A DNA stretch of 64,000 nucleotides from a virus, in IMG/VR virus record IMGVR_UViG_3300025913_000021, positions 62,001-126,000 of that record. The stretch is one strand, 5' to 3'. Under the pieces are notes generated by a model. That model searched no databases. It had not been told where the DNA came from and was given only the letters and a program-made list of their open reading frames with translations. A program made the position numbers and the translations under genes. Of the stretch, positions 9,722 to 25,475 are shown piece by piece. How positions within the stretch are numbered: the first letter of the stretch is position 1; each line of letters starts with the position of its first letter.

Positions 9722-9867
9722 GCATCGAGGAGGACTGGATCAAGGAGCCATGCTCGTTCTGTGGTGCCGCTCCGAACCAGCCGTGCATGGGGCCGGGCGG
9801 TCGCCGTGCACGTGAAACCCACTCCGCCCGTGTCCTGCTAGCGAAAGCCAAGAAGGGAAACCGATGA
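9718..9867 (+). CDS. small phage zinc-binding domain protein
   Basis: 49 residues from GTG at 9718. CSFCGAAPNQPCMGPGG followed by R-x-x-H-x-x-R is the signature of a small zinc-binding domain common in actinophages, often appended to other proteins. Here it stands alone, just before the vWA protein. Function unknown. Confidence 0.72.
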   Translation: MSIEEDWIKEPCSFCGAAPNQPCMGPGGRRARETHSARVLLAKAKKGNR

Positions 9868-10631
9868 GCATCAGTTTGGAAAAGCGCGTCGAGGCCGCCG
9901 CCGTCTCGCTCCAGAAGATCGCGGCCGACAGCAAGATCGACCTCGGTGACGTGTGCGCCCAGGTCGATGTCGCGATCGACTACTCCGGCTCGATGGGTGG
10001 GCGGTACCCACACGAAGTGCAGGAGGCGGTCGAGCGGATGCTCGCGCTGACCCTCACCGGCCTGGACGACGACGGCGTGGTGCCGATCTACCCGTTCAGC
10101 AACAAGCTGCACGACGCCGACGACCTGACCGCCGCGAACTACGTCGGCTGGGTCGAGCGGTTCTGCCAGCGCAACCGCATGGGCGGCACCGCCTACGTGC
10201 CATTCCTGGAGAAGATGCTCGGCAAGAAGAAGCGCTTCGGCGGCAGCAACGAGAAGGACCAGCCGCCGTTCTTCCACATCGTGTTCACCGACGGCGAGCC
10301 GACCGACTCCAAGCGGTCGATCGAGAAGCACATCGTCGAGGCGCGCGAGCGGCCGCACTTCATCCAGTTCGTGCTGCTCGGCCGCGACCCGGAGGGCCGG
10401 GCGTACCTGGAGCACCTCAACAACCACCTCACGCAGCCGGACCCGAAGAACTGCCGCACGTGCAAGGAGCTGGGCACGCAGGCGGCAACGGCGGGCATCG
10501 ACAACGTGGGTCTGACGGTCTACGCCGACCGCCCGCCGACCGACGACACCGGCTTCTTCAACGACACCATCCGGGAGTTCTTCCTGGACTGGCTGCCCGC
10601 TGCTCGCCAGAAGGGCTACACCACGCGGTGA
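9864..10631 (+). CDS. von Willebrand factor A domain protein
   Basis: 255 residues. The metal-ion-dependent adhesion site is intact: DYSGS (39-43), the Thr of GGT (about 109-111) and the Asp of FTDGEP (about 134). The arrangement resembles vWA proteins linked to tellurite-resistance and MoxR-type systems. vWA domains bind partner proteins through a metal ion. A RuvB-like AAA+ ATPase lies 1.1 kb upstream, and AAA+/vWA pairing is known in MoxR systems, but that ATPase looks like a true RuvB relative, so the link is weak. Confidence 0.85.
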   Translation: MSISLEKRVEAAAVSLQKIAADSKIDLGDVCAQVDVAIDYSGSMGGRYPHEVQEAVERMLALTLTGLDDDGVVPIYPFSNKLHDADDLTAANYVGWVERFCQRNRMGGTAYVPFLEKMLGKKKRFGGSNEKDQPPFFHIVFTDGEPTDSKRSIEKHIVEARERPHFIQFVLLGRDPEGRAYLEHLNNHLTQPDPKNCRTCKELGTQAATAGIDNVGLTVYADRPPTDDTGFFNDTIREFFLDWLPAARQKGYTTR

Positions 10632-16304: not shown

Positions 16305-16636
16305 CCGAGACCGACCGGCCCGGTTCGCAGTACCGCCACAAGCTGCCCAAGGACCAGAGGAACCTCAGCACGACGGAGCTGGCGCGCCGTGCTGGGGTCG
16401 GGGTCGGCGTGTCGATCATGCGCTGCGGGCCGTACTGGGACGTGGTGGCCCGGCTCGACGCCAAGGGCAAGTTGGAGTACATCGTCACCGACTGCTCCGT
16501 ACAGGGCCGCAAGCCGCTACTCGTGCATGGTCCGGTCTCACGCGACGCTGCGATCAAGTGGGCGAAGGAGACCGCGCTGCTGTTCATGTCGGTGCGTGGC
16601 GGTCACATCGACGACGACCTGATGGGGCACCGATGA
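16301..16636 (+). CDS. hypothetical protein
   Basis: 111 residues from GTG at 16301. A basic N-terminus, a strand pair (WDVVARLDAKGKLEYIVTD) and a helix (RDAAIKWAKETALLF), an alpha-beta layout. Not recognised. Confidence 0.7.
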   Translation: MTETDRPGSQYRHKLPKDQRNLSTTELARRAGVGVGVSIMRCGPYWDVVARLDAKGKLEYIVTDCSVQGRKPLLVHGPVSRDAAIKWAKETALLFMSVRGGHIDDDLMGHR

Positions 16637-16980
16637 TCGTCGAGATCGTCGAGGCCGGGATGATCGTCGCGGCCGGTGCCTTGGGCAACGTCATGGGCTG
16701 GACGCGCGGCCGGGCCGAGCGCAACATCATCAACCTGTTCACGACCGGCCAGGCCGAGAACCTCTGGTGCCTGTGCGGCCACGCGATGTCCATGCACGCG
16801 AAAGGCACTGACTCGTGCAACGATCACGCCCTCAATGATCAAGGGAAGATGATCGTCACCTACAAGACCGGCGTGACCACGCAGTACATGCGCTGCCCGT
16901 GCATGAAGTTCGTCGGCGATCCCAGCAGGAATCCGACGCCCGTTCAAACCCGGAAGGACGTGCTCGACCTTGGCCAGTAG
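16633..16980 (+). CDS. Cys-cluster protein with hydrophobic N-terminus
   Basis: 115 residues. Residues 1-22 are hydrophobic (EIVEAGMIVAAGALGNVMGW) and may anchor it in the membrane. The rest has CLCGHAMSMH and CPCMKF, a possible metal site. Function unknown. Confidence 0.7.
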   Translation: MIVEIVEAGMIVAAGALGNVMGWTRGRAERNIINLFTTGQAENLWCLCGHAMSMHAKGTDSCNDHALNDQGKMIVTYKTGVTTQYMRCPCMKFVGDPSRNPTPVQTRKDVLDLGQ

Positions 16981-17305
16981 CGACATCACCGGAGACCCGA
17001 AGTTCCAGGAGTTCGCCGAGAGGGCGATCACCAAACTGGTGCCGATGGTGGACGAGTCGGCGTACTGCGTGGCGCTCGTGCCGCGCAAGCCCGAGGACTT
17101 CAACGACATCAAGTTCTGCGTCGAACTCGGCATGATGATCATGATGAACAAGCCCATCGTGTTCGTCATCGCGCCGGGCACCAAGGTCCCCGAGAAGCTG
17201 ATCAAGGTGGCCGACCGGATCATCGAGCTGGACACCAACGACGCGAAGTTCATGGCGACCCTGGAGGAGACGCTCCAGGAGCTGACCGTCGAGCTGGGGC
17301 TGTGA
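16970..17305 (+). CDS. Rossmann-like protein, possible nucleoside deoxyribosyltransferase or TIR relative
   Basis: 111 residues from TTG at 16970. The order of a strand (YCVALVPRK), a helix with a conserved-looking Glu (FCVELGMMIMMNK), strand (PIVFVIAPGT), VPEKL and strand (ADRIIELD) follows the short flavodoxin-like fold of nucleoside 2-deoxyribosyltransferase and TIR-like proteins, where the helix Glu is catalytic. Substrate is unknown: it could be a nucleotide-salvage enzyme or act on NAD-type molecules. The fold match is by eye. Confidence 0.68.
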   Translation: MASSDITGDPKFQEFAERAITKLVPMVDESAYCVALVPRKPEDFNDIKFCVELGMMIMMNKPIVFVIAPGTKVPEKLIKVADRIIELDTNDAKFMATLEETLQELTVELGL

Positions 17306-17514
17306 TGGCCCGCCCGTCGGTGGACGTGCAGGCCAAGAACCTGGCCGAGTTCATGGCCGGGATCTTCGCGGGCTGGGTCGAGAGCAACTTCGTGCCGCAG
17401 TACCTGGAGGGCGAGACGAAGGTTGAACGAACGGGCATCAGTTCCTTCACCATGACCACCCGCTCCGGCACCGTGCTGCGCTTCGATGTGACGGCGGTCG
17501 AGGCTGGTGAGTGA
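17305..17514 (+). CDS. small hypothetical protein
   Basis: 69 residues. ATG at 17305, one-base overlap with the previous stop. A helix (NLAEFMAGIFAGWVES) and a C-terminal strand pair. Not recognised; it may be related in layout to the next gene, which also has a helix followed by two strands. Confidence 0.66.
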   Translation: MARPSVDVQAKNLAEFMAGIFAGWVESNFVPQYLEGETKVERTGISSFTMTTRSGTVLRFDVTAVEAGE

Positions 17515-17728
17515 CGGCGGCGAGGAGCTGCTGACCGGCGTGATCGCCGGGTCGCTCTCGCAGCTCACAGGCGTCAGCTTCCCTATCAAGATCAAGGCCG
17601 TGAACGTCCTCACCGACGCGAACGGCGACTACCGACGGGTGGTCGAGGTCGAAATGGCCAGCGGGACGTACTACGTCTCAGTCACGCCATACGATCCCGA
17701 GACCCCCGTCATCGAGGAGGAACCGTGA
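17507..17728 (+). CDS. small hypothetical protein
   Basis: 73 residues from GTG at 17507. A helix (LLTGVIAGSLSQLTG) followed by strands (YRRVVEVEMASGTYYVSV), ending VIEEEP with the next ribosome-binding site in the Glu codons. Not recognised. Confidence 0.67.
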   Translation: MSDGGEELLTGVIAGSLSQLTGVSFPIKIKAVNVLTDANGDYRRVVEVEMASGTYYVSVTPYDPETPVIEEEP

Positions 17729-17964
17729 GCAACAAGAACGATCTCTACAACGCCCGACACCGGCTGCCCACCGACGGCAGCGTGCGCGGCAACGACGGCC
17801 GCGTCTGGCACCCCAAGGGCGAGGGCAAGTGGTGGTACACCGACGAGCGCTACGTCGCCGCGATCCCGACCAGCGTGCTGAGCCAGATGCACGGCCCGCT
17901 CATCAAGGTCGAGGAGCCGAAGCCCACCCGCGAGCTGCCGGTGAAGGCGATGCCACGTGGTTGA
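17725..17964 (+). CDS. small hypothetical protein
   Basis: 79 residues from GTG at 17725. Central RVWHPKGEGKWWYTDERY is rich in Trp, Tyr and Lys. Basic overall, not recognised. Confidence 0.66.
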   Translation: MSNKNDLYNARHRLPTDGSVRGNDGRVWHPKGEGKWWYTDERYVAAIPTSVLSQMHGPLIKVEEPKPTRELPVKAMPRG

Positions 17965-18601
17965 TCTCCCGGATGGGATGCCCGTCGGAATCGCCAAGCT
18001 GCCGCTGAACAAGGTCGGCTACCCGGTGCCGTGGTTCGTGTGGACGAACCCGGACACCAACGAGCCCGACTTCCGCGTCGTGAAGCCCGGCGCGATCCGA
18101 GCCGCGCTCACGCAGAACCTGTGCTGGATCTGCGGCGAGTCCATGATCGGCACCCAGGCGTTCGTCATCGGCCCGATGTGCGCGGTCAACCGCACCAGCG
18201 CCGAGCCGCCCTCGCACCTGCTCTGCGCGCGGTGGGCGGCTATCGCCTGCCCGTTCCTCGCCCGGCCGGAAATGGTCCGGCGTGACCACTTCGACTTCGA
18301 GCACGTGGGCATGGCGGGTGAGGCGATCCTGCGCAACCCCGGCGTGGGCCTGGTGTGGCCGACACGGCGCGGTGAGTGGTCGGTGTTCCAGGTACCCAAC
18401 GGCATCCTGTTCCAGATCGGTGAGCCCGTCAGGGCCCCGGAGTGGTACGCCCACGGTCGGGTCGCCACCCGCGAGGAGGCCGAGCACTCCATCGACACCG
18501 GCCTGCCGTCGCTGCACAAGATCGCAGACGAGGAAGGGCCGGACGCCCTGGAGGAGCTGGACCGGCTCGTCGGCGTGGCTCGGACGTTCCTGCCGGTCTG
18601 A
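17957..18601 (+). CDS. conserved hypothetical protein with CxxC
   Basis: 214 residues from GTG at 17957. Pattern PVPWFVWTNPDTNEPDFRV, CWICGESM, CAVNRTSAEPPSH and CPFLARPEM is shared, in my recollection, with hypothetical proteins of actinobacterial plasmids and phages. The Cys set suggests zinc. Function unknown. Confidence 0.76.
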   Translation: MVDLPDGMPVGIAKLPLNKVGYPVPWFVWTNPDTNEPDFRVVKPGAIRAALTQNLCWICGESMIGTQAFVIGPMCAVNRTSAEPPSHLLCARWAAIACPFLARPEMVRRDHFDFEHVGMAGEAILRNPGVGLVWPTRRGEWSVFQVPNGILFQIGEPVRAPEWYAHGRVATREEAEHSIDTGLPSLHKIADEEGPDALEELDRLVGVARTFLPV

Positions 18602-24991: not shown

Positions 24992-25098
24992 CCCGCTGCC
25001 AGTGCGGCTGCGAGAAGGCCGAGCACGAGAACCGAGGCTCGTGCGCCACGTGCGGCCCGAAGCGCTGCCCTGAGTTCCGAGGAAGGTGGTTGCCATGA
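24928..25098 (+). CDS. small zinc-ribbon protein
   Basis: 56 residues. ATG at 24928 follows GGAGGGATTGGG, a fair ribosome-binding site, 64 nt inside the phosphoesterase gene. CQCGCEKAEHENRGSCATCG forms a compact Cys/His cluster. Overlaps the next gene by 4 nt. Confidence 0.62.
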   Translation: MQPAQGLRRPGGFLDKAVARLTRCQCGCEKAEHENRGSCATCGPKRCPEFRGRWLP

Positions 25099-25475
25099 CA
25101 CTGCCTGACAAGCTGCTCGGCCCCGAGGGCTACGACCCGATGTGGGACGACGTGCGCAAGGTCGGCGACACCGCGCTGTACTTCGACCGCCAGGGCCAGC
25201 CGATGACCCTGCGCCAGTGGGTGACCGGCATCGAAACGGACGAGTATCGCTTTCTCAAGCGCACCCGCGTGGGCGAGAGCATGATCGTCACCGCCTGGAA
25301 CGGCGTCAACGACGGCTGGCCCGACCCCGAGGCGCAGATCTTCGGCACGATCGAAATCCGTGGCCAGGGCGAGAACGTGACCTATCACGACGAGGAGACC
25401 GACAGCACCGAGGCTGCGGCCCTCGCCACCCATGATCGCCGGGTGGAGGAACTGAGGAAGGAACTGAACCCGTGA
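25095..25475 (+). CDS. hypothetical protein
   Basis: 126 residues. ATG at 25095 after GAGGAAGGTGG. An alpha-beta protein with a strand-rich middle (SMIVTAWNGVNDGWPDPEAQ) and an acidic C-terminus. Not recognised. Confidence 0.7.
   Translation: MTLPDKLLGPEGYDPMWDDVRKVGDTALYFDRQGQPMTLRQWVTGIETDEYRFLKRTRVGESMIVTAWNGVNDGWPDPEAQIFGTIEIRGQGENVTYHDEETDSTEAAALATHDRRVEELRKELNP

What the first reader, a model, noticed from the sequence alone, without database searches (positions are those of the whole stretch)
16970..17305. Small deoxyribosyltransferase/TIR-like protein
The order of strands and the Glu in FCVELGMM resemble enzymes that cleave nucleoside or NAD glycosidic bonds. In a phage this could be nucleotide salvage or an anti-defence activity on NAD-derived signals.
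Basis: inference. Interest (0 to 1): 0.5.

Follow-up and report, generated by a model that had tools for sequence, protein, structure and literature searches.

The report
Phage half-sized deoxyribosyltransferase-like protein
This small phage gene encodes a stand-alone half of a nucleotide-cutting enzyme fold that has kept the key catalytic acid but lost the strand that normally completes the active site, so it probably handles a nucleotide in a way not yet described.

Summary
Window 16970-17305 (+) is a real gene: 111 aa, TTG start, GC by codon position 0.57/0.32/0.96. It belongs to a family found almost only in viruses (phrog_18163, unknown function): 13 GenBank actinophage records, 58 distinct proteins aligned, 1 relative in 84,980 species genomes. 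GenBank of the 13 "deoxycytidylate deaminase", which my searches do not support.

A confident AlphaFold2 model (pLDDT 94) matches the deoxyribosyltransferase/N-glycosidase superfamily best (DNPH1, BcmB, MilB), with moderate scores. But the match covers only the C-terminal half of the enzyme: the strand and loop with the catalytic Tyr and most of the sugar/phosphate pocket are absent, and the catalytic Asp position is Lys here (acidic in 32 of 58). A family-specific D-x-K-x3-E motif takes over.

Most likely it is an oligomeric nucleotide binder; cleavage is possible but unshown, and an anti-defence role is untested.

The parts
16970..17305 (+). Gene of the half-NDT protein (111 aa, TTG start)
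   Evidence: ORF; codon-position GC 0.57/0.32/0.96; phrog_18163 E 3.4e-29; profile A2 E 6.8e-38, the one match in the record
17105..17131 (+). Family motif D46-x-K48-x3-E52-x-G54 (DIKFCVELG); E52 codon at 17123-17125
   Evidence: D46 57/58, K48 55/58, E52 56/58, G54 58/58; D, K and E together in 55/58; E52 aligns with E88 of CtNDT (counted)
17033..17035 (+). Codon of Lys22, at the place of the catalytic Asp of DNPH1 (Asp80)
   Evidence: VIA-align range ends, e.g. 8os9_B 68 with model 10 (offset inferred, one-residue error possible); column 22 is E21 D11 N8 H4 K3 T3 G3 and 5 others
16952..16958 (+). Shine-Dalgarno-like GGAAGGA before the TTG start
   Evidence: sequence; function inferred
16633..16980 (+). 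Upstream neighbour, 115 aa, overlaps by 11 nt; no Pfam match at 0.01 and no PHROGs match at 0.001
17302..17514 (+). Downstream neighbour, 70 aa, overlaps by 4 nt; no Pfam match at 0.01 and no PHROGs match at 0.001

Best explanation
The gene encodes a stand-alone C-terminal half of the nucleoside deoxyribosyltransferase / nucleotide N-glycosidase fold: helix - strand 3 - Glu helix - strand 4 - helix - strand 5 - helix, without strand 1 and its pocket loop. Shown by computation: the fold relationship, the kept Glu, the missing half, and the near restriction to viruses. Inferred: the protein works as a homo-oligomer, so that a pocket forms across subunits around D46, K48 and E52. There K48 (by spacing at the place of the glycine that contacts phosphate in DNPH1) holds a phosphate and E52 holds the ribose of a nucleotide-type ligand. 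Because the other two catalytic residues of the superfamily are missing or not conserved, binding (sequestering or sensing a nucleotide) seems somewhat likelier than cleaving it. Its place among variable small genes fits an accessory role in infection such as counter-defence or nucleotide control.
For: Fold: AF2 mean pLDDT 94.1, pTM 0.81; Foldseek PDB rank 1 is Rcl/DNPH1 (E 5.8e-3, prob 1.00), BcmB third; VIA-align Z 8.1 to DNPH1 and MilB; the compact DNPH1 alignments (rmsd under 3) start between residues 57 and 73 of the chains (e.g. 4kxn_B, rmsd 2.2 over 86 residues, from 61). Independent predicted model of the Megan relative: TM 0.84/0.88. Sequence: PF05014 in 34 of 40 members at E up to 1, best 1.4e-4; family profile to CtNDT 52-104, Glu on E88 (E88 named catalytic in PMC12645435, passages). 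Half domain: of 12 records searched with PF05014, 11 match in the family gene, from profile position 22-59 onward, while a separate gene in one record (G002, 289160-289504) matches 2-102, so the search does see full-length forms. Conserved D-K-E: 55 of 58, and the two rows without Glu also lack the Lys. In DNPH1 the phosphate is held by Ile29, Arg30, Gly31 and Gly100 main chain, Ser98, and Ser128 of the neighbour subunit, and Glu104 touches the sugar 3'-OH (PMC10483697, passages); D46 and K48 lie at the places of Ser98 and Gly100 by spacing from the Glu.
Against: No oligomer model could be run, so the shared pocket is inference. K48 and E52 are four residues apart in a helix and may only form a salt bridge. 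Near-invariance of Glu could equally mean catalysis: TIR NADases rely chiefly on one Glu (recalled). Structural scores are middling (Foldseek best E 5.8e-3, none at 0.001; VIA Z about 8, a level that the tool warns may mean only a common arrangement, with GTPase-type chains at Z 7.4-7.5 in the same table). The MilB rows align from residue 28 but at rmsd above 6. The window protein alone matches PF05014 only at E 0.097. No conserved gene partner was found, so there is no context evidence for a ligand.
Confidence: 0.4

Rival explanations
1. It is an active minimal N-glycosidase: E52 attacks the anomeric carbon of a nucleotide, NAD+ or an ADP-ribose signal, with the missing pocket supplied by another subunit, for nucleotide clean-up or counter-defence.
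For: E52 in 56 of 58 and D-K-E in 55 of 58 at median pairwise identity 38%; E52 aligns with the catalytic Glu of an NDT; DNPH1 sites already use residues of the neighbour subunit (PMC10483697, passages); a mycobacteriophage glycosidase of another fold degrades Thoeris signals (PMC13232231, passages).
Against: No strand 1, hence no Tyr that pairs with the Glu and no Gly27/Ile29-Gly31 loop; catalytic Asp position acidic in only 32 of 58 and Lys here; Tyr-to-Phe alone cost rat DNPH1 280-fold in kcat/KM (PMC10483697, passage).
Confidence: 0.3
2. It is a protein decoy: a half NDT/TIR-like domain that co-assembles with a host defence effector of the same superfamily and blocks its active dimer or filament.
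For: Nearly virus-restricted half domain; fold shared with NDT and TIR proteins, including the filament of the SpbK TIR protein; an exposed edge strand is expected once strands 1-2 are missing (inference).
Against: A strictly kept polar D-K-E cluster suggests a small ligand rather than a surface; relatives occur in phages of Mycobacterium, Microbacterium and Arthrobacter, which would need a widely shared target; no direct evidence.
Confidence: 0.15
3. It is a deoxycytidylate deaminase, as most GenBank relatives are annotated.
For: Product name in 9 of the 13 records (SchoolBus, JangDynasty, Familton, both Megan records, Nicole72, BeatusComedenti, and one record each of Kitkat and KellEzio); 3 say hypothetical protein, 1 nucleoside deoxyribosyltransferase.
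Against: No deaminase family among the 17 Pfam families matched by 40 members at E up to 1; no PF00383 match in the window's record at 0.001; no conserved Cys (at most 5 of 58 in a column) or His (at most 24 of 58), so no zinc site; fold matches are NDT-type.
Confidence: 0.02
4. It is a decayed fragment of a full-length NDT gene without function.
For: Only the C-terminal half of PF05014 matches.
Against: Same half in 58 distinct proteins of median length about 111 aa with motif columns near invariant; strong codon bias; confident fold on its own.
Confidence: 0.03

Closest known systems
phrog_18163 (PHROGs v4, unknown function)
   Same: 40 of 40 scanned members match, window E 3.4e-29. This is the same family.
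   Different: PHROGs gives it no function; here it gets a structural placement.
Nucleoside 2-deoxyribosyltransferase, PF05014 (CtNDT, LlNDT)
   Same: C-terminal half of the fold; catalytic Glu and an Asp six residues before it (alignment).
   Different: No N-terminal half (strand 1, Tyr, pocket loop); Lys where CtNDT has Gly four residues before the Glu; below the Pfam cut-off (13.3 against 28.8 bits).
DNPH1/Rcl 2'-deoxynucleoside 5'-phosphate N-hydrolase; BcmB and MilB CMP N-glycosidases
   Same: Best structural matches; Glu place by profile alignment to NDTs.
   Different: In the compact alignments chain residues before 57-73, with Tyr24 and the phosphate loop, have no counterpart; the Asp80 place is Lys22.
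TIR domains (SpbK, SARM1, ThsB)
   Same: Similar strand order around the Glu helix; SpbK is Foldseek rank 7, SARM1 rank 48.
   Different: Profiles: TIR_2 1 of 40 at 0.025, ThsB 1 of 40 at 0.012, neither for the window protein; lacks TIR strands 1-2 with their loop (TIR anatomy recalled).
RyDEP, Tad and Acb phage counter-defence proteins
   Same: Phage proteins that bind or cleave nucleotide signals; RyDEP is also from a mycobacteriophage (PMC13232231, passages; Tad and Acb from listings).
   Different: RyDEP has a RyR-domain fold with catalytic H75 and D117 (passage); no similarity to any of these was tested or shown here.

Membership tests
phrog_18163 | Profile match | tested here: met
   E 3.4e-29 for the window; 40 of 40 members of A2
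PF05014 Nuc_deoxyrib_tr | Score over the curated cut-off | tested here: not met
   13.3 against 28.8 bits; 0 of 1 and 0 of 12 records over it
PF05014 Nuc_deoxyrib_tr | Catalytic Glu after the third strand | tested here: met
   E52 on E88 of CtNDT; 56 of 58
PF05014 Nuc_deoxyrib_tr | Strand 1 with Tyr and pocket loop | tested here: not met
   Model begins with the helix before its first strand; alignment to CtNDT starts at 52; median 29 residues before S30 in 58 members (starts of viral rows chosen by me)
PF05014 Nuc_deoxyrib_tr | Catalytic Asp before strand 3 | tested here: not met
   Lys22 here; acidic in 32 of 58; placed by range offsets, so a one-residue error is possible
PF05014 Nuc_deoxyrib_tr | Base exchange or N-glycosidase activity | not testable with these tools
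   Needs purified protein
TIR domain | TIR profile or fold match | tested here: inconclusive
   TIR_2 in 1 of 40 at 0.025; ThsB in 1 of 40 at 0.012; SpbK TIR chain at Foldseek rank 7
Deoxycytidylate deaminase (PF00383) | Profile match and zinc-binding Cys/His | tested here: not met
   Not among matches of 40 members at E up to 1; no conserved Cys or His column
Phage counter-defence sponge or signal hydrolase | Binds or cleaves an immune nucleotide and relieves defence | not testable with these tools

The most novel reading that the evidence does not exclude
Actinophages carry a widespread minimal domain, half of the NDT/TIR-like fold, that completes its site by self-assembly and disarms NAD- or ADP-ribose-based host immunity, by holding or cutting the signal or by poisoning NDT/TIR effector assembly: a counter-defence family built from the same fold as the effectors it opposes.
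Probability: 0.2. Interest if true: 0.75.

Novelty: new variant of a known kind. Interest (0 to 1): 0.45.

Why it matters
The family occurs in many viral contigs and in phages of three actinobacterial genera, carries an unsupported enzyme name in 9 of 13 GenBank records, and has no function in PHROGs. If half of a glycosidase fold works alone, it shows a minimal route to a nucleotide site and gives a concrete candidate for counter-defence or nucleotide control in phages of laboratory hosts such as Mycobacterium smegmatis mc2 155, so the question is directly testable.

Tried and rejected
Weak starts: the single-sequence scan of viral contigs found no relative; the single-sequence PDB search gave designed proteins and TM_1570, and the six-row profile put TM_1570 first (E 0.067) ahead of NDTs (0.2-0.75); only the 40-row profile brought NDTs to E 0.0013.

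Deaminase annotation: rejected. NAD-rebuilding partner in the same record: no NAPRTase-family match at 0.001. A second family member or a separate N-terminal half in the record: one place matches PF05014 and A2.

Conserved partner gene: all-against-all of ORFs in the loci gave, besides the family and its shadow frames, one single-linkage cluster in 14 loci that mixes at least two small families at varying distance, and clusters of 5 loci or fewer, among them HNH-type proteins. The window neighbour 17957-18601 has relatives in 3 loci (L027, L033, L035) within their held stretches, at other distances and without Pfam or PHROGs name. I judged none of these a partner.

Fusion clue: L063 carries an extra C-terminal region without Pfam match; it recurs apart from the family in L017 and L022 and in Streptomyces phage ZL12; uninformative. 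Glu-less relatives (L047, L048) were followed by two scans and two phage searches: no larger Glu-less subfamily was found. Near relatives of the region: no megablast match for 24.9 kb in phages.

Papers: ten searches; no listed title or abstract start dealt with this family, but the listing (PMC13402561, a cluster K1 mycobacteriophage with one mention of a nucleoside deoxyribosyltransferase) was not opened. The library holds open PMC papers only, so absence from print is not shown. Passages of three papers were read. The second structure job and the third Foldseek job were not used.

Rows left out before counting: L010 (repeat of L009), L019 and L020 (L018), L061 (L007), L062 (L048), L064 (L042), L066 (L047), L005 (L044). 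Of 13 phage records, five were fetched. Start codons of viral rows were picked by me. L054 is cut by its contig end but was kept. In one search the lowest profile starts (22 in G404, 28 in G400) run upstream of the gene start, in G400 across a stop.

Full report
What is there. It is 111 aa with a TTG start, the most upstream ATG/GTG/TTG of its open frame. It overlaps its neighbours by 11 and 4 nt and has the codon bias of a gene (GC 0.57/0.32/0.96 by position). The window is bases 62001-126000 of a 149,260-base virus record. Nearby genes on the same strand include an integrase-family recombinase (PF00589, E 1.3e-24), DUF7352 and several without a Pfam match. Elsewhere in the window lie B12-type ribonucleotide reductase domains, an AAA protein with a Toprim-like part, a RuvB-like ATPase, a sigma-70-like factor and a TerF-like vWA protein. 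A 24.9-kb stretch around the gene has no megablast match among 50,697 phage records.

The family. One PHROGs family matches strongly, phrog_18163, of unknown function (E 3.4e-29). tblastn finds 13 phage records (10 phages, three of them held twice) of Mycobacterium (5), Arthrobacter (5) and Microbacterium (3). GenBank names the gene deoxycytidylate deaminase in 9, hypothetical in 3, nucleoside deoxyribosyltransferase in 1. A profile of six rows found 42 viral loci; one of 40 rows found 51, mostly the same. Among 84,980 species genomes there is one relative, on a 54-kb contig of Mycobacterium aquaticum that equals viral locus L007 in contig length and protein. In 396 genomes of that organism's phylum searched with the profile only that genome matched. 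No plasmid record matched the single sequence. The family is thus nearly confined to viruses; the genome-contig scan was pattern-based and can miss distant forms.

The fold. AlphaFold2 on the 40-row alignment gives mean pLDDT 94.1 and pTM 0.81, with H10-29, E33-36, H47-58, E63-67, H75-80, E83-86, H94-109. Foldseek against the PDB lists Rcl/DNPH1 first (E 5.8e-3, probability 1.00), BcmB third and the TIR protein SpbK seventh; no match reaches 1e-3. VIA-align gives Z 8.1 to 7.6 for many DNPH1 chains, MilB and BcmB; the compact DNPH1 and BcmB alignments (rmsd under 3) start between chain residues 57 and 73, while the MilB rows run from residue 27-28 at rmsd above 6. The same table holds GTPase-type chains at Z 7.4-7.5, so the structure alone would not be decisive. 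Sequence profiles agree: PF05014 is the Pfam family that most members match (34 of 40 at E up to 1, best 1.4e-4), and 18 of the 24 PDB sequences that the 40-row profile lists at E up to 10 are named NDT, deoxyribosyltransferase, Rcl or DNPH1-type, the first at E 0.0013 (my count from its names). The window protein alone reaches only E 0.097.

The Glu and the lost half. In the profile alignment the family Glu (E52) falls on residue 88 of CtNDT (counted), which PMC12645435 names as the catalytic Glu, positioned by Y7 (passages). The alignment starts at CtNDT 52, so Y7 and its strand have no counterpart. In 58 distinct proteins there is a median of 29 residues before S30. PF05014 searched through 12 records in six frames matches the family gene in 11, from profile position 22-59 onward, and a separate gene in one record from position 2, a useful control. 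The record of the window has one PF05014 match, profile 49-98. In human DNPH1, Tyr24 shares a short hydrogen bond with Glu104; Gly27, Ile29, Arg30 and Gly31 contact sugar and phosphate; Ser98, Gly100 and Ser128 of the neighbour subunit complete the phosphate site; Asp80 is the proposed general acid (PMC10483697, passages). The phage family lacks the part with Tyr24 and residues 27-31. The Asp80 place falls on column 22 (offset from range ends), which is E21, D11, N8, H4, K3 and others, and Lys in the window.

What is kept instead. The near-invariant columns include D46 (57 of 58), K48 (55), E52 (56), G54 (58), K61 (58), P62 (57), S30 (54), P38 (54), M58 (54), L77 (55), A81 (54), P74 (52) and G70 (49). 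D, K and E occur together in 55 of 58. The exceptions are L029 (D,Q,E), L047 (N,T,Q) and L048 (D,L,Q); both Glu-less rows also lack the Lys, and they are the two least like the window in A2 (22 and 25%). By spacing from the Glu, D46 lies where DNPH1 has Ser98 and K48 where it has Gly100, both phosphate contacts. This supports a rebuilt anion/sugar site, but an intrahelical K48-E52 salt bridge would explain the pattern too.

Mechanism. Shown by computation: superfamily kinship, the kept Glu, the missing half, near restriction to viruses. Inferred: the site is completed by self-association and holds a nucleotide-type ligand, K48 to phosphate and E52 to ribose. I rate binding without efficient cleavage slightly above true N-glycosidase activity because Tyr is gone and Asp is not kept. 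A protein decoy against NDT or TIR effectors is a third possibility. Context gives no vote: no partner gene recurs at a steady place, no NAPRTase-family gene is in the record, and no PADLOC family matches the window protein.

Verdict. The GenBank deaminase name is not supported. The family is a new variant of a known kind: a phage-borne half of the NDT/N-glycosidase fold with its own D-x-K-x3-E motif.

Noticed in passing
MH020246.1 gp112, NC_073368.1 gp71, KU647627.1 gp76 and others (L002, L004, L005): Relatives are annotated deoxycytidylate deaminase in 9 of 13 GenBank records although the family matches no deaminase profile and has no conserved zinc ligands; likely a spread annotation error.
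   Followed up: yes
window 16603-17613, - strand: A 336-aa ORF runs antisense over the gene; similar antisense frames lie opposite the relatives (50 loci in one cluster), best explained by high GC at third codon positions.
   Followed up: partly
L063 2959-3627: A relative fused to an extra C-terminal region that recurs on its own in L017, L022 and Streptomyces phage ZL12; no Pfam match.
   Followed up: partly
window 25086-25475; L014, L018, L023, L025, L045, L050, L055, L058: A small actinophage protein family (FDRxGxPI ... STVWLGIDH ... IFETMIF) recurs in several loci at varying distance; the window copy is a looser match.
   Followed up: no
window 17957-18601 +: A 214-aa neighbour without Pfam or PHROGs name has relatives in L027, L033 and L035 (best E 3e-51), loci that also carry the half domain.
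   Followed up: partly
window 9864-10631 +: A TerF-like vWA protein (PF10138, E 3.6e-23) in a phage record that also encodes a RuvB-like ATPase and a sigma-70-like factor.
   Followed up: no
L008 record (G002) 289160-289504 -: A 533-kb virus record carries both the half domain and a separate PF05014 match over profile positions 2-102, below the cut-off.
   Followed up: no
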